Origin: Ulva prolifera
Taxonomy: Eukaryota > Chlorophyta > Ulvophyceae > Ulvales > Ulvaceae
DNA: 64,000 nucleotides
Direction: 5' to 3'
Assembly (NCBI GenBank): GCA_023078555.1
Contig: CM041201.1
Coordinates: forward strand, 8,129,172 to 8,193,171
Part shown: positions 8,906-57,600 of the stretch, in pieces
How the letters are laid out: each line of letters opens with the position of its first letter
Numbering within the stretch: position 1 is the first letter of the stretch
Position numbers and translations under genes: made by a program
Notes under the pieces: model-generated
The model's database searches: none
Told to the model about the DNA's origin: nothing
Seen by the model: only the letters and a program-made list of their open reading frames with translations

Positions 8906-10751
8906 TCGAGATCGTGAGGCTGCAGTGTGTGAGGGGCAAGTCGTGCTGCAGCGCTGGAGGGGGCGGATGGATGCATTCAATCGATGTGTGGTGAGTGTGT
9001 TCATTGGGGGAGAGGCAGAAAAAAAGGGAGTTCAATGGCAGCATCTTTGCGACCATCACTGCCCGACCTGAAATTGCAGCATCCGCCGGCCCCACTTCCT
9101 GGCCGGTGCGGCACAGCAGTGACCTCCGGGACGGATCTGGCTGAGAACCTGACGAGGGAAGCGGAACCTTGCTGGCTTCCAATCTGTGCATGCACAGATT
9201 GGATGTGCACAACCACATGTAATTTCATAGACTGCCAACGGACCGGGCAAGCTGGATGACGACAGCGTTTATAGCTGGACCCGAGGACCTTTGAATTGCA
9301 GACCGTGGGATGTATGTCCACAATGTAGGATTAGCGCTCTGCACTTGGAACTGCACATTCTATCAAGTAAGCCTGGTGAGCTTTGGATGTGGCCGCGGGG
9401 CAGTGCGGCCACCGGGAGTGTGGGACACTGTGGCGGGTTCGCGTATCAGCCACGGCAGCTGGCGGGTTAAAGTAAAGTAAATCTAAATGGCGGGTGCATA
9501 TGACCCTGCGGGCGTCTTGGCATGTCGCCGCCCGTGCCGCCCAGGGTCGTTCTGTCTGTGGGAGCGTGTGACTTCTCAACTAGACCTCTATTTCTTGCTT
9601 TTGCTTCATGCCACCATCCCTTTGCCCCCGTGGTGGTGCTGTCTGCACGTGCTCGTCGCGCTTTCGGCGATAGTGTATTCGATCCTGTCTCAACATGGCC
9701 TGGCCAGTATCTGCAACACAGCTGTAACACTCACAGGGGAGTCGCCTCCACTGACCACAGCAATTTCATGGCAACTGCGATTGGAAGCACCCTGCCCGGC
9801 TACATCACCTCGTGATATCCTCTTGACTATGCACACGTCAACTCATTGCTCAATGCTTGGTAGCTCGAGCGATGTTTGGCCTTTCGAACCATCCAGAACA
9901 ACAGCTATTACAACGGCGGGAAATCTCTGCGAGCTGGTGTGATCTTTCAGTTGCAAACCGTGGACAGCACATCGCCAGCAATTGAAACCAGGCAGCCCCG
10001 GCGCCCAACCGATGGTCCACTCCATCGCAAACGATCACGCGCTCAGGCTTGTTGCTGTTGCTGAATCATCTCGGGCACAAGCTCATGATCAGATGTTGAA
10101 CCGAGCCAGGTGCCGTTGTCACCTCCACTTTCACGGCTCCTGCTTCGGAGGCATGCAAGCCGCTGCAAACATGGCCTTGCGCCATCAAGACACAGCTTTC
10201 CGCCGATACCGGTCATGTCCCTGCTGCGGGACACACCCACGCACACGTCTCAACATGCGGAGCACCTGCTGAGCGCCGGTACCTGCATAAGCCCGCATTC
10301 CATGGCTCCGTGCAGAACGCGCCGGAAACCGCGGCGGCGCCGCCGCCGCCTCTCGGACCCATCATAACCACACTCTCAGCTGTGCCCTACCCAGCCTCCG
10401 CTGCCGCGGCTGCCACCACAGCCCTCCCCCCAAACACATGAAACAAATCAGTAGTCGGCGGGGGTCCCCTGACCGGGCCTACCTCACAGAGCCAGCCTGC
10501 AAGGACGGCACGCCCTCGCACCGCCGGGCAGCCGTGCACGCTCGTAGCCACAAAGCGCTCCGGAGGGGGGTGTGGGGCCGCCGTGGGTGCTGCTGCGGCG
10601 ACCCATCGATACGCGTATGACCGCTGTACCACCGGACCGCAACAGCCGGCCGGGCGTCCGCGGGGCTCTGCTCTACTATCTGGGCGTGCTTTCATTGTGT
10701 GTTTGCCTGCGCCTGTGTTCACGCGTCTGTTGAGCGGCCATGCAGGTGCCA
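8906..10751. other. 1.8 kb with no recognised gene
   Basis: This stretch lies between the 3' end of the plus-strand DUF1254 gene and the 3' end of the minus-strand YjbQ gene. A short AAAGTAAAGTAAATCT string near 9470 resembles, in reverse, the tail of the SINE-like repeat. A minus-strand frame at 10387-10752 immediately follows the YjbQ stop; it is alanine/proline-rich with no domain and looks like readthrough of GC-rich 3' sequence. Confidence 0.4.
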
Positions 10752-44232: not shown

Positions 44233-47200
44233 ATGGCAGCGAAAACGTTATATAGTGCTGAAGTAGATGGCGGTTCCTGCGCGCGAGTAGCATTAGCAGC
44301 CCAGTTCTTGCGAATGCCCGTTTAGCAAGGCAGCAAACATGAGTCGAACAAATTTTTGTCTTGACTTTGACTCGGACTTGAAATGGGCCATGCAGGTGCG
44401 GCTGAAACCAAGCATGGTTTCGTCGCTCATGGCTGCACAAGAGAGGGGGGAAGACATCCAGCTTCTGTTTTCCGCGGCCCACTCTGCGCATGTGCGACCC
44501 TTACTTGCTTGATCGCTGCGACAATATCTGCCTCCCCGTTGGTAAGGTAATTGGAGCCAATTGTGACGCATGTATAGGTTCTCACGGTCGGGGAAAGTAA
44601 ATACAACCTCACATGCCGTGGAGAGCAAAGCAATGATCATACAGTCTGTGAGCTGGACAAAGACTGGGGGAAAGGCCGCGCCCAGGAAGTGGGTGTAGTG
44701 AAGATGCGAGGCGAAGTGCAAGTGCGCAATGCTCCGCTAAGCTTTTTTTTCACGACAGTGATCTCCATTGTTGTAGCCATCTGCTTCAATTCATATTATT
44801 GATGCAGAGTACGTTTGAGGAAAAGGCTGCCTCCGTGTCAAACGCCAAGAGCACAACCTGCGGGAATGTTGGCAAACGGATTCGGGAGGCCTGTAAACCT
44901 GCGCAACCAGTTGGCGCCAACACGTCTGCAGCGGGAGTTGCAAATTCTCATGTTCGAATGCCCGCCTGTAGCATTCTGTCGCCGCCGCGGACAGATGCTA
45001 CTTCTCCGCCTGCCCAAATTGTGCGATACTACGCATCGCGTGATCCTTATCAGGCTGCCGTATTGAGCTGAACGCATGCACGTTTCTAAATGAACAATTT
45101 TCACGCACTTGTAATTCTGTTCACGTGATGTATGGAAGAGCTCTGTCGCTGCGTGCGGGGGCCCGATGGCGTGCTTTACGCTCAGACAGGTCGCAAGTGC
45201 AGGCAGCAGGGGAACACAAAGAGTCTCGGGGCCCCTCGCCAGCCCCCCAACGCGAGACACCAGCGCCCATTACCAACTCTGAGGGGGCGATAGTTGAGAG
45301 CTCTACATTGAACGCCGTTGCTCGTGAAGCAGCGAAGCGAGCTCAGCTGAGAAACTGCGTGCTGGCGTACGTTGCCGGGAACAATTCGCGGGTCAAGCGA
45401 AAATTCACACATGGAGTACAGCAATGCTACCGTGACGCGAAGAAGAATGGTAGCGTGCGTCTCCTAGCCGTGTCTGAGTCCTGTGCCTGCATCCTGTTGT
45501 GCTCCTCGCTCGTGTACACACGCCTGTATCATACCCGCAATGGCCTCTTGCTTTGCAGGCGCCAGGCTCTTCCATCATAGATGGCGTTGTAAATGAAGTC
45601 ACTCAGACTGGAAAGTACGGCTGGCATCTCACGCCGAAGGCCCGTGATGAGTTGATAACAAAAGTGTTGCCTGAGCTCAGCTCGGCCAACCCAGCTACTC
45701 CTCCATCCGGGTTAGCAAAGGCCAGCAAGCTCTCAAAGAAGCCGAAGTCTTCACCCAAAACACAGCCCGTTCCCGCCTCAGAGTACAAGCTCAAACGGCA
45801 AAAGCTCGCCGGCGATGAGCCCACGAAGGAGGCTGCCGAGGCCAAGGTGAAACGGCAGAAAGCTCCTGGTGATGAACACATGAAGGACATCCCGGAGGCA
45901 AAGGCGAAACGCTCGAAACACTTCCCTGACCACAACACAGCCGGGCCGTCCGAGCCCAAACAGAAGAAGCACAAGTTCGTCGCTGCTGCGTCAAAGCCGT
46001 CTGCTGGCGCCTCTGCCGCTAAGTCCCATCGGCCGGAGAAGCAGGCCATGCAGGGTCCCACACACGGGTCCCCAGACGGACAGAAACGTTCGCCAGCGGC
46101 CCCGCTCCCTGCCGTGAAGGGCAGCGCGCTTGCACAGCCCAAAGCGCGCGGCGACGCCCGGCCTGCAACGGACGCTGCAGTGCCGCGGTCAACACCCCCG
46201 GTGCGGACTCCCCCCGCAGCCGCACCTAAGCCGACGGCGGCCCCAAAGCCGCGCGTGGCGCCGCGACCGGCTGCGGCCGCTCCGCCCCAGCCTGCACAGC
46301 CGGCCTCTGCGCGCAGCACCCCAGCCAGCCCGGCGGACACGCCGATGCAACACCCCCCGGAGGCACCACCGACGCGCACCGCGCGGGTGGCTAGCCCGGC
46401 CCCGCCGAAGGTCCCAGCCGAGGCGTTGATAGATCACTACCCGCCAAAGGTTGCTGCAGAGCTGCTGGAGGGCATGGGGGATGACGCGGTGAGGCCGCTG
46501 CCGGCGTGGTGCGAACCGGCGGACGAGGGGGCCGACGCCGAGGTGGAGCTGCGCTGCGGCGGCGGTGCGGAGCCGGGGTCGCCGGGGAGCAACGAGTCGG
46601 AGCCGCGGCATGACAGCGAGATGCGCGGCGGCGGCGGGGACGGCGCGGAGGGCCCGGGCCGGCGGCGGACGCGCGGCGCGCGCGCGCCGAACTACTGCGA
46701 GGAAAGCGATGATGACTTTGCAATCGACACGACGCCGGTCGCGCGCGCCGTGCATGCAGCGCCTGCTGCGCACACGGCAGCGGGGCCGGACGCTGCGGGT
46801 TACGCTGCGGCCGCGGAGCATGCCGCTCCGGAGGCAGACGCCGGGTTCTGGCGAGGTGCTGCGGCTGCGGCGGAGGCGCCGGGGGCACAGCAGCCGGCGC
46901 AGCCGGCGGGGGATCTGGAGCCGGGGCAGCTGCCCGGCCCGGACACCCCGCCGGTGCAGCTGGCGGAGGCGCCGGCAGGCAAGGGCGGCGCGCCGTGGGC
47001 GCCCGAGGTGCAGGCGGAGGCGCTGCCGCAGCCCGCGGTGTCGCTGCGGGACAGCAGCTGGTTCCGGGAGTACGCAGAGGCCGCGGCCGCGATGCGGCTG
47101 GGCCGGGCGCTGCCGACGCTCACAAAGGCGGAGGTGCCGAAAGCGTACGAGGCGTATCGGTCGCTCGCGGCGGAGGTGCAGGAGCAGATGCAGGTGATGG

Positions 47201-47358
47201 AGGCGATCGCAGCCGAGGGCGACGACAAGGCGCTGAATGCGGAGCAGCAGCACCTGCTGCATGAGTTCCAGGTCAATCAGCAGTACTGGGAGGATGCGTA
47301 CATGACTCTGGCGGCCCTGCATGATAGGCTGGGCCAGGCCCGCGCACGGGGGCAGTGA
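44233..47358 (+). CDS. Probable ELL-type RNA polymerase II elongation factor
   Basis: The two last exons are firm: one ending at 45454 and 45559-47358 (phase 0). The C-terminal 90 residues (KAYEAYRSLAAEVQEQM, LLHEFQVN, AYMTLAALHDRL) resemble the occludin/ELL domain. The segment LRNCVLAYVAGNN to HLTPKARDELITKVLPE resembles the end of the ELL domain, which in animals stimulates Pol II elongation. Between them lie about 400 residues of lysine-rich repeats (LKRQK, VKRQK) and then proline/alanine/glycine-rich linker. Upstream, in-phase pieces at 44233-44286, 44396-44491, 44645-44721 and 44808 to about 44890 could supply the N-terminus (MAAKTLYSAEVDGG; VVKMRGEVQ; GNVGKRI), but one junction is unresolved. 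A simpler model starts at the ATG 45128 and gives 708 residues. The downstream GC-rich exon produces long antisense frames that I discount. Confidence 0.55.
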
Positions 47359-48623
47359 CTGTATTCTTCGGGGCCGCGTGAGGTGGGGAGGAGGCTGTGA
47401 GGTTGGAGGGGAGGCGTAGGCGAGGTGCTGGTGAGAGTTCACAATGGGAGTCGCCAGGAGTGCAGCGTATGGCTGAATGTTTATGGTGACCATTGCAGCG
47501 GCCATAGCAGCGCTTTGCTCGAGGCTGTATTGCTGTGTTGTGTGTATCTGGCCTTTTCTAGCATGTATGTGGCGAGTTTGCCTGCCAGTGTTCCTGTAAT
47601 TGCTTGCTGTCCTTGGTGCTGATGGGATGAGTTGTGGTGTGAGGTGGGCGGCTCATAGCTGTCAGTGATGTTGCAGAACGGTTCGCAGCACATGTGCCAT
47701 TGGTTGAAGCAAGGCCGGCTTCTCGTAGACAATCGTTCAGCTGACATCCAGAGTCACACTTGCGGATGGAACCTCCCTCAGCAAGCATCACACAACACCG
47801 TTTACAGTTTGTAGAGTTCCGAAAATTTTCTTGATGACAATCCTGTGCGAAGCGTTCGCAACTACACGGTGCTCAAATTGGTTCAAAGTAATCAACATCG
47901 AGGAAGACGTTAATGCCCGTACCCTCTCTTTAACTCGGTTGGGAACTGACATTGTGCATTGAATAACAGCAAGTGGCCAAGGAGTGCGCGGTGCAGACGA
48001 GCTGAGGCAGTTTGTGTGACATGAGGCACAAAGAACAGGCAGAGTGAAAGCCTCATGGTTGCACACGCTGAATAGGCATGCTGAAGAGCACCATGTAGCG
48101 CACACGTCCATGGTCCGCTGGCTGTGAGCAACTCCAGGTTCTGTGCAGCAGAGGAACTGAACAGCGCAGCTGCTCAGCTACCAGCAGTATGCCGATGACG
48201 CTTCGGGTGTCAACCCTCAGCAGCCAGCAGCCAGCGAGAGAGCCTCATAGTCACTGTGGCAGCCCCCTTTTGCGTGGCAGAAATGGTGAGCCAGTGTTTG
48301 GTCGGGCTGCAGTCTGACGTTGGTCGCATGTGAATTCACATTTGCTGCATATGCTGACACGGGCAGCCTGCCGACATTTCAGTGCACTATGGTACAGCAC
48401 ACAGACGATCGGCAAGTCTCGCGATGATCACTACATACTGTCTATGCGTGCTCACATGTGCGGAATCCCCGTTCGAATCAATCTGATGCAGGTTGCTCAG
48501 GTCTGGCAGTGTGATGCATCAATGCATGTGCTTGGCTGACCGAGAGTCAGACCGGTGTGTGTAGCGGCATCATGTGACCAGGTTCTGCTTCATGTTGCTG
48601 TGTTTGTTTCTGTGTCATGTATG

Positions 48624-48740
48624 GAGATGTTCAAGCCAACATTTGTATTCGTGTTCCCTGTGCAACAAGCGAAGCCAAACACGCTGTGGCTTCGCTTGTT
48701 GCACAGGGAACACGAGTACAAATGTTGGCTTGAACATCTC
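48624..48740. repeat. Near-perfect 54-bp inverted repeat (hairpin)
   Basis: The left arm is 48624-48677 and the right arm 48687-48740, separated by nine bases. When folded, all 54 positions pair; the single difference (48648 T against 48716 G) is a wobble pair on one strand. Arms begin GAGATGTTCAAGCC and end CAAGCGAAGCCA. There is no coding potential shared by both arms. It may be a foldback element or a small-RNA precursor. Confidence 0.95.
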
Positions 48741-49343
48741 ACGCACAGCAACAGGCATGATCGCTCAATGTCTATCGTGTATCGCCCGCAGTCTGCCTCA
48801 CCACACGCCTGCACACCTGTACCAATGCACCGCCTTTTCTCCGCTCTGCAGATATCTGCAGCCCATCGACCTCGTCACCCGAGGCACAGAAGATTCTGAG
48901 GGACGGCATGTGAATCGATGGGGACTTTGTGTCTGTAGCTGGGGCAGATGGTGTAGCAGTGCATGCTGTTGGCATATAGCCTGCTTACAAGCAGAAGTTC
49001 CAGCCAGACATGTCTCTCCCACTTGCTCTGCAGCTGCATGCTACTGCACCGCTGTTTACAGCAGAGTCAAGACAGTTGCTGGATCGTTGGACATGCTTTT
49101 GCTACCTGTCTCTCGGGTTCAATGGCCACATGGGCTGACACCTGGGGCTCTGAGCTCGCATGCGTGGAACCTCAGCCACAACGTCGTGGCCCGTCAGCCG
49201 CTCAGCTGCACAGATCAACTCGGCCTGCCTGGGAGTCATCTACAGCTCACGTGTGCACAGCATGTGAGGGACTTCATATCAGTGCAAGTGATTGCTGTTG
49301 CCATGACATCTGCAGTTGAGAGGCATGTCACACACAGAGTCGC

Positions 49344-49408
49344 CAAGGACGACAGATGCAGGTGAGCAAAGTGTCCTCGCTGTTGCAGCCATGCATCTGT
49401 CGTCCTTG
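49344..49408. repeat. 17-bp inverted repeat with 31-base spacer
   Basis: CAAGGACGACAGATGCA at 49344-49360 is repeated inverted at 49392-49408. A second pair, GCTGTTGCAG just before the right arm and CTGCAACAGC just after it, could form an alternative stem. No function is known. Confidence 0.75.
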
Positions 49409-50359
49409 CCACTGCAACAGCAACCTTTGACACTGAAAAGCATAGGAAGATGCGAGCATACTCAGAAGCAGGGTAGTCTGGTTGCAGACAATACAAGAAT
49501 AGATTGCAGGGCACATTCGAGGTATCTTCTAAGTTACAGCGAGGCACAATGCATACTTTGCATGAATACACTCATCCGCTGCGCGACTGCGTTAGCCAAA
49601 GACTGCATTGCACAAGCCGGCAATCACGAGGCTTGATCTCTCCGATCAACGGGCCCCAGCGCATCAAAACGCTGGCAGATTCTGCACGAAGCAGCCCTCG
49701 CCAGAGCTCACACGGCTGCCCATGTAGCGCGTCCAGCCAGCTGCAGCAAGAATGTCTTCCACCTTGAGCTCCAGCCTCGCCTGCCGCGTCCAAGGAGCAC
49801 CAGTACACTCCTTGGAACCATACGCACGTGTACACGCAAGTAAGAATCGAATCAACCACACACTCCCGACAACCTAATCTGATTTCCTCGACAGATCAAT
49901 CAACACCAGCTTATTTCCAGTGGGTGTCGTGCGCCACCCCCACCGCGATGGGACAACCCTTCGCGCCGCGAAGACTGGCCGTCCCCGAGCTTGCCCCACA
50001 ATCGTTCAAATAATCGAAATCTCCGGCCGTGGTGAACGGTCACCTGTGCTCACGTCCCGGCACCTTTTCTGCAGCTCTGCAGCTGTCCTACTGCTGCATA
50101 TATCGCCCTGCCATCCCCGAGGTCGTCATCCTTCAACGCCCCGCAGCACAGCACAGCACTGAAATGCGCAACATGCTGTCTGCTGCAGAACCCAGCACAT
50201 GCACGCACCTATCACAGCCAAAACTCCAGGTGTTTCCGCATCCCCCGCGCCCCCCCTGCGTTTCAACTCCCGGGCATGCACGGTGCCGACATTCACTGGA
50301 CACAAAAAGGCCTGGGCAATCAACCAAAACCTGGCCGACTAGAGCGACATGCGCACGCT

Positions 50360-53300
50360 CTATCCGACGACATGGAAACAGTCGGAGCCAACGTTGGCGC
50401 CGGTGTTAGCCTTGATGACGCCGCACAGGGTTGTGTCCATGATCTCGCGCATGAACCCTGCGTAGCCGCCGCCGGACGTCATCCACCAACCGCCCACGTT
50501 GCCGAAGAAGCACTCGTGGAATTGCGTGACGATGATCTTCCGGAGGGTGGCCGGCAGAACCTCATCGGACTCCTCTGCAAGAAGGGCGACGAAGGACACG
50601 TTCATCTTGTCGGCCAGCTGCACCGCACACAGCCCAGTGGTCAGAGGTGGCCCGGGTGGACGGGGCTGGATGGATAGAACACGGCGGGTGTTGGAGCATG
50701 CAACTGGGCTGGCGACAAACTGAGTGAAAGGGGGAATCTTTGGCCGGCATGCGCGCAGGTGTCCCTGGTCCCGGGGAGGTGGCACTCCTTGCCAAGCCGC
50801 TCTCTACAGAATCGGCGTGACATCCACATGTGCTGCAGACAATCTCTGTTTGCTATATACACTCCGCCGAGTGCCACACAAGGATGCCACAGCACGTGAC
50901 ATGGTACGAAGATAGGGGGGAGATCGGCTGAACACACGCATGGGCCGCTGTGTGACGCGCGGTCAACGCGCAGCCGAGACAGTCAAGGCACACACACCTT
51001 CTTGTCAGGCGTGGCACCGTAGCACTTGGCGAGTGACGCGTAGTCAACGATGCCCATGTCGCGGCCGCGGAAGATGTTGCGGCTGGCGAGGTCCTCCCCG
51101 AAGGCGCCGAAGAGGGTGTTGCGCAGGGTGTCGGACATCTTGCCATCACGTTCCGCCGCGAGGTTAACGGCGCCCTGCTCGAGCAGGCTGTCCAGCCGCT
51201 TGTCGGCGTCCTTGCGCATCGCCCAGCCGCCGTCCTTCTGCTCCAGGAAGTAGTCCTGCAAGCAAAGAATGATAATACCCTCAACGCCGTGTGTTCCGGA
51301 GGAGAGGGGGGGGGGGGGGTGTTGGGAGGTGGGAGTGCTGAACGGAGCCAGGACACCAGTGCGCGCGGCGACGTTCGATGGGTCCTAGCAATATCAATAG
51401 GTACACGCCTGCGCGCCGCGTCCGTATTCGCATGTTTGTTTCGCGTGTGTGGCGGTTGTTTCAGTCCAGTCGGATGACGCCGGGCCCGCCCGCCATGCGT
51501 CTCAAGCATGTATGAATGATTTGAGTACCTGATTCGGTGTGAACGATGACGTAACATATGACGGCGCGCAGTGCACGAACGGCTGCATGCAGTTGCAACA
51601 CAGCTTGCATATGCGCTGCCACCGTGGCAGTGCCACGTGTAATTGAAGGGGGACAGGCCCAGGCCAGCTGGGGGCTATGAGCGAGCAAAACCGCCAGAGC
51701 ACAGGTGCGACACCACCGCGACCACACCGCAAACGGTACAAGGAGAATGCCGGCAAGCATTGCTGCGCGCAGAGCAGTCGATCGATTGCACGGGGGACAT
51801 GCGGCGGCGAAGTCTGCGCAATAATCGAATTATCAGCAAAATCAGCGCGGGCAAGCCGGAAGCTACACCACATGGCTGACACGCATGCGGATATGCGGTC
51901 CAATGTGGGGTGGTATGAAATTGGTGCAGGGCGCGGCATGGCGCGCGCAGCTGTCTTGGTAATCGCGGCGATCGGGCAGCAGTAGTGCAGGCGACCGACA
52001 CAAACCTGCGCGCCTTGACGGGAGCGCGCACAAAACCCGCAGGTGCTGCGCAAGACGACCAAGGTGCCCAGGCTACGCAAAGACCGCAATTATCTCGGAG
52101 CCACTCGAGCATACAGACGCGCAGAAGGTGCTGACGGGCTGGTCCACTGTGCCATGCATCGGAAATCGAAGCCGCGGATGTGACGTCTGCTCTCAGCCCT
52201 CCGCCGCAGCATGCATGCGCATGACCAGGTCACATATGTGTACTGGGGTACAAAGTTCACTAGTTAGTACTGTATTACATGAACATCACATATGTGGCCA
52301 GGCCCGGGGTGTGGCTAGGAGCGGCTCACAAGATCGCGTGGCACAGCACGGCCTCGCGCGCGTCCCCCGGACGTCGTCGGGATGCACAGTTGTGCACAGG
52401 CGGAGCCGGGCCTGGCATGGGGCCTGGGGGGCGGCGTAAGGGGGGCATGATGGAACACGCATGCATGCTGCGTGCACAAGGTGTCGAACATCGAAGATGG
52501 GGTGGTGGACGCCGTACCTCGCCATTGAAGATGCCGACAGTCGAGATGTCGCCGATCATGTCCGGCACGAAATCTGCACATCAGGAGCACTGTATCAGTC
52601 GGCATCTCCCAGAATACTTGTCTTTCATTGACACGCGCCTGGGGAGGGGGGTGCGACAGGCGCTTTCACGAGGCTGACCAGGCTGGACCGTCGCGGGGGA
52701 CCAACGTTTGTCTTATTCAGCTGAATTCAGGACCATGACCATAACATGTGCAGGTACACTGGGACGACAACGAATGTGTCCGCAAGTTCACGGCGTCTAC
52801 GGATGAGTGTATACGGCCGCACGCCAAAGAACGCGTCGCGGCCGCCATTAATTGGTACCTGGCAGAGGGTGGCCGCATGCGCACACCCACGCGCCGCCAT
52901 TCAACATCCAAATAGCATGTGGTCGGCCTGTGGTATCCATGACCACGTGCGGGCACAAACGTTCGGAGCTCGCATCCGGCCTAGAACGAGCGAGCGTGGT
53001 AGCGGCCGGCTGCAAACTTGCGACGTCCATGGGCTTCCGCCGCTTTGTGGACCCACATATGCATGGCAGCACCAACCGCCGGCGACCCCGGAGCAGGGCC
53101 CCGTGCCTGCCCAGGGCGCCCAGCTGCTGGGGCACAGGATCGATGGCCCGATGAACCGGCCACAATCCTCGGCCAAAATCCGCGCGTGAAACTGGTCCGG
53201 GCCCGAACCAGCCGGGCATGGCTCATGCACGCAGGTGATTCATACCCGTGCAGCGCTGCGCCTGCTCGCAAGACACACGACCAACATACATGCAGTGCAT

Positions 53301-54393
53301 AGGCGGCGGACGCAGGAAGGCGGCGGCGCACGCACGGGAGGTCGCCCCGGTGCATGCCTTCACACGCCCCCGGGCTCGTCGTAGTTCCGCCGGGAGCCGA
53401 CATACACACACTCGGAGGAGTGGCTCAGAAGAGTAACCGGGCCTCAGCATTCACAACACGAGAGACGTTCACGCAAACGAGGTGCGGCACTACCTCCGAG
53501 ATGCCCGGCGCTCTTCGGGAGCCACGCAACGGTGGGCGTAGGCCGGCGTCAGCCCTGCGAACAGCAGCCGCCAAACACTTGCCACAGCCATCGAACGCCC
53601 GTTGCGGCGCCCAGTCACGCACTCGAGCTCGAGTAAGACCCCGAAAGGGATGCAAGGCGGCACGTGCAGTGGCGTATGCGCCCGTCGCAACGTGATGACA
53701 GCAAACCACTCCAATGGGTCCAATGGGTTGAGGACGGATTAAAAGCTACCCCCTCCGTTTCAGGAGGTCGTGGGTTCGATTCTGCGTGCGCTTTGGGGAA
53801 TCGAAACGGCCGTACGTGACCACCTCGCTTAGCACAGGAGGAGGCCCTGTGAGTTGCGTACGGTCGTCTGAGGGGGGTTTCCAGGTGGTTTACCCCTTCG
53901 GCATATGTGGTCCCGTTAATTCGGAGTTGTCAATGTCAAATAGGATACGGCTCAGTAAATTCAGATTTTACTTTTTGCTTTACTTTACTCCGGCGCAGGT
54001 CCACGCGGGCGCACGCACGCGACATGGACGGTCCATGCCAGACAAAACGCATTCAGGGGCAGCAGGAGACTTCATCGATGGTCAGCAGCGGCCCAGGCGG
54101 CGCGGCTGTTCGATGGTACGGCGTGCTGCGGCCTGATGACTGATGAGCCCACTCTTGTGGTCGACGACATATGCATGCGAAGGCCAGGTGACAAGTTTGG
54201 CAAAGGTAGAGCCTGGTCACATCCGGGCCGGGGAGTTTGTGACAGGTAGTCATCCAGCAGACAGGCTGCACGTTGGGCACTGCTGCGGTGGATCGTAGAA
54301 GTCGACCTGTTGGGGGAGCAGGTGCAACACAGTCCGGGACGCGGGAGGAGTCGCGGGGATTTTCGCGACTCTTCCACAGCACAGCAGCACAGG

Positions 54394-54432
<39 letters not shown>

Positions 54433-54519
54433 CACGCACACTTCGTGTGGCTTGCTGCGTGGTGTGCGGTTCCCCTGGTTCTTGCTTGCGGTGCTACCTG
54501 CCTCGCTTGCTTTGTCCTT

Positions 54520-54602
<83 letters not shown>

Positions 54603-57600
54603 GCACGCGCACGCGCGAGCAGCAGGCAGCCACAGCGAGCAGTATGATACCCGGGCCATAAAATACAGAGCACGCAATTTAGGGCACAGCAGAGTTGATC
54701 GCACCGTGGCCGAGGCGGTATGCTGCCGTGGCAAACTCGACGGTGATCTCGGGGCCGAAGCTGCGGGTGGGCTCCTTGCGCACGTCCATGTGCGAGATGC
54801 CGAGCGCCGGCAGGAACTCGTTCATCGTGATCTGCTGGATCTTGGCGCCGATGACCTGCTCACCACACCCCAGCCTGTGAGGCACGGCGAGTACTGATGC
54901 CGGACGGTACACATATGCACACTGCGCGAGCGACGTACAACTCACAAGCGCTCGGACCATTGCATGGAAGACCATCATAACGAAGAACAAAGCAATGCAG
55001 TCAAAGTGCAAACCGCCTGCGCGTGCCGGCGATGGGGGGATCAGTCCCGTCAGGCTGTGCGCGGCTTACCACAGAGGCCAATGCTGCATCACATCCACAG
55101 GTATAGGTGTTGTGGGGACGAGGCTGGAGGGGGGGCAGGCCGTACGCACCCGGCGGATGAGCTCAAACTGCTCGTCGTGGGACATGAACTTGCTGCGGAT
55201 GGATTCGCCGAGCTGGTCGCACAGCCTGTTGTGCTCCCGCATCCAGAGCTGCACAGGCAGCGCACACAGTCAGGTGATGCAAACAGTCAGGTCGATCGGT
55301 CAGCGGAGCTGACACTGCTGGCAGGCAACTGCTTGTAGGCAACGCCACAGGCAGAGAGAGCAGGGCTTGCACGGGAGCCCAGGAGAGGCAGGCACATCAG
55401 GGGGCAAGCAGGCACAAGCACACGGTGCCACTCAGCCTGAGTGCAGCCAATGCACTGCAGCAAATTGTGCACAGGCGGACCACCAGTGCCTCCACTGTGT
55501 TACAAGGATGCAGGTGGCCAGGCGGGCAGCACACACCAGTCCCACACACTAGTCCCACCACTAGAGGAGGACACAGATCCGAGGACCACCAAGTACACAC
55601 CATTAGTGTCTCACCATGTGTCCTTGTAACACAATCAGAGTGTTGTGCCCGGGTGGCAGAGAACATGATTGATAGTCAGGCCATGTGCATGTGACCAGGT
55701 CTCATATGACTGTGTGCATGCATGCTGGGTCACCTCACTCATGGGTGTATTGACTAATTCAGCCAACCATACATTTGCAGGATCTGCAGTTTTCGAGACC
55801 CAGCATTATGCATTACTGTATTGCAAGCCTGGGTGAATTTCATGGGTGTCATGCTCCTGATGGGAACAGAGGCATGCATGGCTGACAGACTGGCAGTGAT
55901 GTTCCCAGTTCATAGCCCTATCCTGATAAATCCAAATCTGAAATTCGTCGGAAAGCGGAAAGCGGCTTTTCACGACAGAACCCAATAGCGACCGAAAGGT
56001 TCTGGGACCTTGCAGCTGTTGAGCTAGCCAGGCTGACTGTGATTGGACTGCGAGGTGGAAGATAGACACCGTAAGCGTGAAAAAGTGCCCGCAGAAACCA
56101 ACAGACGAGACCCTCGTGGCCACAACTCGACAGCCCCGCACTGCCAGCACTATTACGCAGCAGAGTATAAAAAAAAAAATCACATCAGAGCTTGCTGAGC
56201 ACATCCCAGCGCCGGCAGCCCCATGCATGACACACATCTGTGCTCTGCAAGCACTATAGACTTGCTGTAGCTGAGCTGCAGCCGTCTCTGCGGCACGAGC
56301 GAGAGATCCTGCAAGAGAGGAGCACAAGGGCTGTACACTCCTCAGAGCAATCTCTGCAATTCTACACCTCCCCCCCCACTCTCCGCAGCCCATGCTGGAC
56401 AGGCACCAACATCCCTCCGCAGCACGCACAGCACGGCACAGCACACAGCACGGCACACCCACGCCCAGCGCAACACAGACAAGAACCACTCCAGGTCAAT
56501 CACATGCCCCTCCACACACATCACAGCAGAACGCCACATCCACACAGCTTGCGGCAGAGCAAGGGGCCTCACCGTGTGCATGGACGTCAGCATCGCATGC
56601 TCATCCACCCGTGCGTCTCCGGCGAGGAAGAAGAATCGCCCCTTGTCGTCGGCCTTAGTGGTGATCGGCAGCATGTCGCTCTCAGAGGTGCGCAGCTTGC
56701 AGCTCTTCGGCTCCCGCAGCACGGTCTTCAGGTAGGCCTCGTCGGTGCCGTAGATCTGGCTGCCATCGATCGCGGCGGTCTGGATCTGCGGCGGCGCCGG
56801 GCAGCCGTCCTCCAGCGGCGCCACGAGGCGGTGCAGGACCATGTCCCCGCTCTTCTTGCCGTGTTTGACCTTGATGGTGAAGGTCGGGCCGGACAGGTCG
56901 TCGAGGGTGGCTACAGGGGTAACGCGGAGTGATGTGGGGACGGGAGGGGGGGGACCCGGGGTGCATGGGCCTGGCCGCGGGATCGCGTAGGGGCAGGGAT
57001 GGGACAGATCGAGGAATTAGAGCATTTGTGGGGCGGGCTGGGTGGCGACGCGAGAGGGTGTCGACGGACGATGGCATGGGCGTGGGATGACGTGCGCGGT
57101 GATGGGAGATGACTGGAATTGACGTGATGGCCGCGCGCTGGCAGAGACACAACAGAGGAGAGGCAGCGCAGACAGGGCAGACACGGTACTCGCCCAAGTG
57201 CAGGACACGAGGAGGCGAGCGGCTGGCAGATGTGAACTCACGCAGATGATGCACGGAAGCAATGGTCGCAACGGGCGCAGTGCAACCAAGTTTGGATCAA
57301 ACTCCAGACGGCCATGCTAGCTGCTTCGCCCAGCGTCTGGGATCATGCAGTCGCGTTGAGACAAGTCGCTTGAATCGATGTGAACAGAGATAACCCGGTA
57401 CCGCTGAATGTAACCGAAATGCGCGCTCGGGGATGCTGAAGGCGTCATGACGCAAGACGATGCTCACGCATGGCACATACCCGCTTTCGAACTGCTGCTT
57501 CGTCACAGCCGGGACACATTCCCCAGGTGAGGTGGAGATCATGGGTTTGCGGGTGAAAGACGGGTGACCCGTGATGAGCATGGCCGACAACCGCGAGCCA

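What the first reader, a model, noticed from the sequence alone, without database searches (positions are those of the whole stretch)
48624..48740. A 54-bp stem with a 9-base loop, every position pairing
The arms differ at one base, and that difference gives a G-U wobble when the top strand is transcribed. A chance inverted repeat this long and exact is implausible, and both arms staying matched suggests either recent formation (palindromic foldback) or selection on structure. It lies in a convergent intergenic interval, away from any exon I found. It could be a young small-RNA precursor, a foldback transposon relic or a template-switch product.
Basis: seen in the sequence. Interest (0 to 1): 0.75.

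Follow-up and report, generated by a model that had tools for sequence, protein, structure and literature searches.

The report
Young perfect hairpin in green alga
A 54-base stretch of presumed non-coding DNA in what is probably a green alga is followed, nine bases later, by its own mirror copy; it is most likely a recent copying accident that could feed the cell's small-RNA machinery if it is ever transcribed, and nothing found so far shows that it has a function.

Summary
Arms 48624-48677 and 48687-48740 are complementary at 53 of 54 positions around the loop AACACGCTG; the one difference (T48648/G48716) is a U-G pair in plus-strand RNA. It is far beyond chance: z -19.1; 40 surrogate windows scored at most 15, against 51 here. 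The window lies in an 88.9-Mb genome, probably of a chlorophyte alga judging from one Argonaute exon. The searches found no second copy, no target-site duplication, no Rfam match at the curated cut-off, and only chance-level second sites for three tiled 21-mers. That speaks against a foldback-transposon family and gives no sign of a parent gene. The genome holds Argonaute pieces at two loci and pieces of a Dicer-like gene: helicase and two RNase III domains, the first just under its cut-off. So a transcript could be diced. Best reading: a recent local inverted duplication, probably replication template switching, not shown to be transcribed or selected; at most a newborn siRNA/miRNA precursor. 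This is a known kind of thing. Small-RNA reads and a close relative's genome, neither available here, would decide.

The parts
48624..48677 (+). left arm of the hairpin (54 nt)
48678..48686 (+). 9-nt loop AACACGCTG
48687..48740 (+). right arm, reverse complement of the left arm at 53 of 54 positions; T48648/G48716 is the difference (U-G in plus-strand RNA)
48600..48765 (+). stretch folded: stem plus a weak, imperfect basal extension (TTGCTGTG of the left flank with CACAGCAA of the right flank); 8 of 500 mononucleotide shuffles (60-nt flanks) and 8 of 300 (200-nt flanks) align as well, so the extension is weakly supported at best
47359..50359 (.). interval between the ends of the two convergent reading frames; presumed intergenic; no tRNA, and no Rfam family at its curated cut-off, anywhere in the window

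Best explanation
A 54-nt stretch of presumed intergenic DNA was copied back in inverted orientation 9 nt away in one recent event, most likely a short-range template switch of the replication machinery (or the equivalent repair of a foldback end). The event made a perfect palindrome that has since gained one transition. It is a structural by-product at birth: at DNA level it could extrude a short cruciform; at RNA level, if either strand happens to be transcribed, it gives a 54-bp double strand that the organism's Dicer-like enzyme could cut into one or two small duplexes for Argonaute. Shown: the hairpin, the near-identity of its arms, no second copy found, pieces of Dicer-like and Argonaute genes. 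Inferred: the template switch, the recency, and that transcription and dicing are incidental or absent.
For: 53 of 54 complementary with abrupt ends. Arm divergence 1/54 = 1.9% (95% interval 0.05-9.9%), so young or recently homogenised. No other copy found in the 88.9-Mb genome with 133 nt at E <= 10, 241 nt at E <= 0.001 or 2901 nt at E <= 0.01; the tool scores only the best candidates of a first look, so short or diverged copies could be missed. No target-site duplication (longest shared word of the 25-nt flanks is 4 nt, not in register). Three tiled 21-mers at up to 3 mismatches gave 4 non-self sites against 2 for the same patterns read backwards. Template switching is reported to create long perfect stems, microRNA loci among them, as reverse-complement repeats (PMC8794818, passages), and perfect inverted repeats in apes (PMC7954356, passages).
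Against: The pre-event state was not seen: no relative's genome is available, and the only paralogous stretch found (window 48924-49142 with C4:7235884-7236083, 78%) shows no reliable homology into the hairpin. No microhomology signature was shown. A hairpin kept perfect by selection or by intramolecular correction would look the same. The second foldback in the same interval (49279-49436) could point to a small-RNA locus rather than an isolated accident.
Confidence: 0.6

Rival explanations
1. It is a working young miRNA or hairpin-siRNA gene: an intergenic transcript folds, Dicer-like cuts 20-22-nt duplexes from the 54-bp stem, and Argonaute uses them; perfect pairing is kept because it is used.
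For: Piwi-domain pieces of two Argonaute loci, C6:7.87 Mb and C3:9.51 Mb, the first nearest to green-algal and plant Argonautes among named organisms; Dicer-like pieces in order on one strand at C6:1.658-1.674 Mb: helicase, helicase C-terminal, two RNase III. [quoted passage not shown] Stronger fold on the plus strand. A second foldback 0.54 kb away in the same interval (z -5.4).
Against: No expression data. Second sites for three tiled 21-mers are at chance level. Rfam: nothing at curated cut-offs; at E up to 1, one search lists 11 matches (10 on the hairpin, best E 0.00019), to eight different miRNA models at 21-31 bits against cut-offs of 63-90, i.e. what any good hairpin would give. The neighbouring foldback is not among the 25 strongest of 1064 tiles, although no tile covered it whole. 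For land plants DCL1 is said to act little on perfectly paired RNA, new foldbacks perhaps giving mixed siRNAs first (PMC1790633, passages).
Confidence: 0.25
2. Foldback or MITE-type transposable element, or a relic of one.
For: Shape: two long inverted repeats with a short centre. Volvox has terminal-inverted-repeat elements whose repeats act as miRNA precursors (PMC5093975, passages).
Against: No second copy found, no target-site duplication, only 117 bp in all.
Confidence: 0.04
3. Assembly or library artefact (foldback chimera fixed in the consensus).
For: Raw reads could not be checked; one assembly only.
Against: Long-read foldback chimeras usually mirror far longer stretches (recalled), and a 54-nt inverted copy with a 9-nt loop would have to be present in most reads; the one difference between the arms argues against a pure copying artefact (inference).
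Confidence: 0.06
4. A structure acting at the 3' ends of the two convergent genes (read-through barrier or insulator).
For: It lies between two convergent reading frames.
Against: It is about 1.27 kb from the plus-strand stop and 1.6 kb from the presumed minus-strand stop; TGTAA words (green-algal poly(A) signal, recalled) occur nearer to each stop, at 47595 (+) and 49534 (-), although such words are frequent (71 in the window, both strands).
Confidence: 0.05

Closest known systems
Template-switch-generated RNA hairpins (Monttinen and Loytynoja 2022, PMC8794818; passages seen)
   Same: Long, perfect, local reverse-complement repeat with a short loop, young.
   Different: There the event is read from reconstructed ancestral sequences; here no relative was available. 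Transcription not shown.
Young, non-conserved miRNA/siRNA foldbacks of plants (Arabidopsis inverted-duplication loci, PMC1790633; passages seen)
   Same: Near-perfect foldback, one locus, in a genome with Dicer-like and Argonaute gene pieces.
   Different: That paper reports 16 loci with an origin from protein-coding genes (48 non-conserved families identified); no such parent was found here, and no reads are known.
Chlamydomonas miRNA precursors (PMC4635600: passages and section 11; PMC4817775 and PMC5511227: passages)
   Same: Long double-stranded segments, species-specific.
   Different: 61.1% of the high-confidence ones lie in introns or UTRs of mRNAs (PMC4817775); this one lies in a presumed intergenic interval, with no reads.
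Foldback elements / MITEs (recalled)
   Same: Inverted-repeat shape.
   Different: No second copy found, no target-site duplication, tiny.

Membership tests
miRNA gene | stem-loop precursor with few mismatches between the arms | tested here: met
   53 of 54 Watson-Crick pairs plus one G-U; z -19.1
miRNA gene | Dicer-like and Argonaute present in the organism | tested here: met
   Piwi: 6 matches at two loci, 5 over the cut-off. Dicer-like: one RNase III piece over the cut-off (48.4 against 27 bits), one just under (25.0), helicase and helicase C-terminal pieces over theirs; that they form one gene is inferred from order and strand; no PAZ match in the pieces scanned, and no genome-wide PAZ search was made
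miRNA gene | precisely cut 20-24-nt reads with a star strand, Dicer-dependent | not testable with these tools
   no small-RNA data
miRNA gene | near-complementary target in the genome | tested here: inconclusive
   three tiled 21-mers, up to 3 mismatches: 4 non-self sites against 2 for backward controls; best has 2 mismatches, C3:8639512-8639532, in an ordinary, not low-complexity stretch whose gene context is unresolved; not every register was tiled
miRNA gene | match to a curated Rfam miRNA family (not a requirement for a new one) | tested here: not met
   none at gathering cut-off; 11 weak matches at E up to 1, all far below cut-off
Foldback element / MITE | several copies in the genome | tested here: not met
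   (counts are lower bounds by the tool's own note)
Foldback element / MITE | target-site duplication | tested here: not met
Template-switch (local inverted duplication) product | perfect or near-perfect reverse-complement copy within tens of bases | tested here: met
Template-switch (local inverted duplication) product | ancestral sequence without the second arm | not testable with these tools
   no relative's genome; homology of the C4 paralogous stretch is reliable only for 48924-49142

The most novel reading that the evidence does not exclude
A newborn small-RNA gene caught at the perfect-stem stage in a green alga: one template-switch event made a Dicer substrate in intergenic DNA, beside an older, decayed foldback (49279-49436) in the same interval, so that the two would show successive ages of hairpin birth and decay at one transcribed locus.
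Probability: 0.15. Interest if true: 0.5.

Novelty: new member of a known kind. Interest (0 to 1): 0.25.

Why it matters
How new small-RNA genes arise is still discussed: by inverted duplication of a gene, from transposons, or from chance hairpins made by template switching. A near-perfect hairpin without a recognisable parent or second copy, in an alga with Dicer-like and Argonaute gene pieces, is a clean place to ask whether such accidents are picked up by the silencing machinery. By itself it shows only that such an accident is present.

Tried and rejected
Foldback transposon: set aside for want of copies and of a target-site duplication. Copy of a viral sequence: one 24-mer of the arm had no exact match in viral contigs; nothing else of the arm was tried there. 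Known RNA family: none at cut-off; no tRNA. Coding origin: the plus-strand frame 48565-49365 is open through the hairpin, but GC content by base position modulo 3 is flat there (0.52/0.55/0.54), whereas 45600-47358 is biased (0.78/0.75/0.59), so it was taken as non-coding. An empty site in the paralogous C4 stretch: not obtained. The gapped alignments beyond the 219-bp match beat mononucleotide shuffles (0 of 100 as good upstream, 0 of 100 downstream; the 183 nt right of the hairpin 2 of 100, the 120 nt left of it 7 of 100), and the upstream alignment even runs through the hairpin; but they are gap-ridden and the shuffle ignores dinucleotide bias, so I do not count them as homology, which is a judgement. 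The left arm alone has no counterpart there (20 of 100, and 57 of 100 against the other strand). Density of such hairpins: a scan of 20 stretches of 10 kb from contig C6 plus the window (264 kb) found, beside this hairpin, only a tandem palindromic array in L014; by another program the two later stretches (14.5 kb) held one weak 24-nt, 75% pair and none. No comparable single hairpin in those 200 kb outside the window does not exclude up to about 15 per Mb, and the window was picked because a reader noticed the hairpin. The scan needs a 14-nt exact seed and penalises mismatches, so it misses imperfect hairpins. Species: the Argonaute exon is nearest to environmental sequences without an organism name (up to 90% identity); its best match with an organism name is Chlamydomonas euryale (60%); no RuBisCO large subunit in the assembly, so no plastid marker; a first guess of Ulva was searched only in paper listings and not pursued. 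A macroalgal miRNA review (PMC12026948, passages) was looked at and not used.

Full report
What is there. Window bases 48624-48677 and 48687-48740 are reverse complements at 53 of 54 positions, separated by AACACGCTG. The one difference, T48648 against G48716, is a U-G pair in plus-strand RNA and an A-C mismatch in minus-strand RNA. Folding 48600-48765 gives -119.6 kcal/mol on the plus strand (z -19.1, 0 of 200 shuffles as good) and -109.9 on the minus strand (z -16.0, 0 of 200). Among 1064 plus-strand tiles of 160 nt in the window this is the extreme. In 40 Markov surrogates of the window the best inverted-repeat score was at most 15, against 51 here.

Where it is. The window is C6:8129172-8193171 of an assembly of 88,887,114 bases in 44 contigs. 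An Argonaute exon from the same genome is nearest to environmental sequences without an organism name and, among those with one, to Chlamydomonas euryale (60% identity), so I take the organism to be a chlorophyte alga; the species was not established. To the left is a long plus-strand reading frame, 45478-47358, without a Pfam match; to the right three minus-strand reading frames match animal haem peroxidase (50983-51384, 54679-55065, 56342-57016), and a presumed last exon ending at 50360 has no Pfam match. The hairpin thus lies in a presumed convergent intergenic interval of about 3 kb. No RNA family at its curated cut-off and no tRNA were found in the window. At E up to 1, stretch 48500-49500 draws 11 matches to eight miRNA models, 10 of them on the hairpin, best E 0.00019, all at 21-31 bits against cut-offs of 63-90; I read these as what any good hairpin would give.

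Is it a repeat? The hairpin with 133 nt (E up to 10), 241 nt (E up to 0.001) or 2901 nt (E up to 0.01) finds only itself and its own mirror at this place; the tool scores only the best candidates of a first look, so short or diverged copies could be missed. The 25-nt flanks share no word longer than 4 nt. A foldback element with copies elsewhere is therefore unlikely. The 2901-nt query did find one other thing: window 48924-49142 has a 78% copy on C4, with no further copy at E up to 10. Beyond 219 bp the alignment is gap-ridden; it beats mononucleotide shuffles (0 of 100 as good on each side) but I do not trust it, and the hairpin arm has no counterpart in the 4.5 kb fetched around it (20 of 100 shuffles as good). 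This stretch therefore does not show the state before the hairpin.

Does it come from, or point to, a gene? Three tiled 21-mers of the arm (positions 1-21, 16-36, 31-51) allowed up to 3 mismatches: 4 non-self sites in all, against 2 for the same patterns read backwards. The closest, 2 mismatches at C3:8639512-8639532, lies in a stretch of ordinary complexity with overlapping chance-like reading frames on both strands; whether a gene lies there was not resolved. This is chance level; no parent gene and no target stand out, although not every register was tested. In Arabidopsis 16 loci with such a parent are reported, with 48 non-conserved families identified (PMC1790633, passages).

Could it be used? 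The genome has Piwi-domain pieces at two loci, C6:7.87 Mb and C3:9.51 Mb (6 matches, 5 over the cut-off). At C6:1.658-1.674 Mb, on one strand and in order, lie a DEAD helicase piece (31.7 bits, cut-off 26), a helicase C-terminal piece (56.9, cut-off 23.5) and two RNase III pieces: the second is over the cut-off (48.4 against 27) and nearest to Dicer-like proteins among solved structures, the first is just under it (25.0). That they form one Dicer-like gene is inferred; a Dicer platform match is far below its cut-off and PAZ was not searched genome-wide. So the machinery that would cut a 54-bp stem appears to be encoded, but whether the stem is transcribed is unknown. [quoted passage not shown] In land plants newly formed, perfectly paired foldbacks are thought to yield mixed siRNAs first (PMC1790633, passages).

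How it arose. One difference in 54 (1.9%, 95% interval 0.05-9.9%), abrupt ends and a short loop fit one recent inverted copying event. Template switching during replication is a published mechanism that makes such stems (PMC8794818; PMC7954356; passages of each). It is inferred here, not shown. Pairing outside the stem is weak: 8 of 500 and 8 of 300 mononucleotide shuffles align as well.

Second foldback. In the same interval 49279-49436 folds with a perfect 17-bp core (z -5.4, 0 of 200 shuffles as good). It was picked after the fact, and it is not among the 25 strongest tiles of the sliding scan, though no tile covered it whole. It may be an older relative in kind, or nothing.

Verdict. A real, young-looking hairpin of a known kind with no second copy found; origin by local inverted duplication likely; function unproven. 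Interest is modest unless small-RNA reads turn up.

Noticed in passing
window 49279-49436: Second, imperfect foldback 0.54 kb from the hairpin: 17-bp perfect core (49344-49408) inside outer arms 73% complementary; fold z -5.4.
   Followed up: partly
window 48924-49142; C4:7235884-7236083: A 219-bp presumed non-coding stretch with one 78% copy on another contig, just downstream of the hairpin.
   Followed up: partly
L014 574-1757 (C6 about 1.2006-1.2018 Mb): Tandem array of palindromic units (GAATGGTTGGTGG...CCACCAACCATTC), arms of 27-31 nt.
   Followed up: no
window 50360-57016, minus strand: Presumed intron-bearing gene with animal-haem-peroxidase domain pieces, and a long GT/CA-type simple repeat around 54.3-54.65 kb between two of them (seen as TH/CV runs in the reading frames).
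   Followed up: no
C6:7873717-7875806: Argonaute pieces lie about 0.25 Mb from the window on the same contig; the piece L007 contains one TGA in frame, perhaps an intron.
   Followed up: partly
L041 about 9180-9520 (C6 about 1.667 Mb): Tandem repeat of 57 nt, six copies, read in one frame as a 19-residue unit, between the helicase and RNase III pieces of the Dicer-like gene; coding or intronic not resolved.
   Followed up: no
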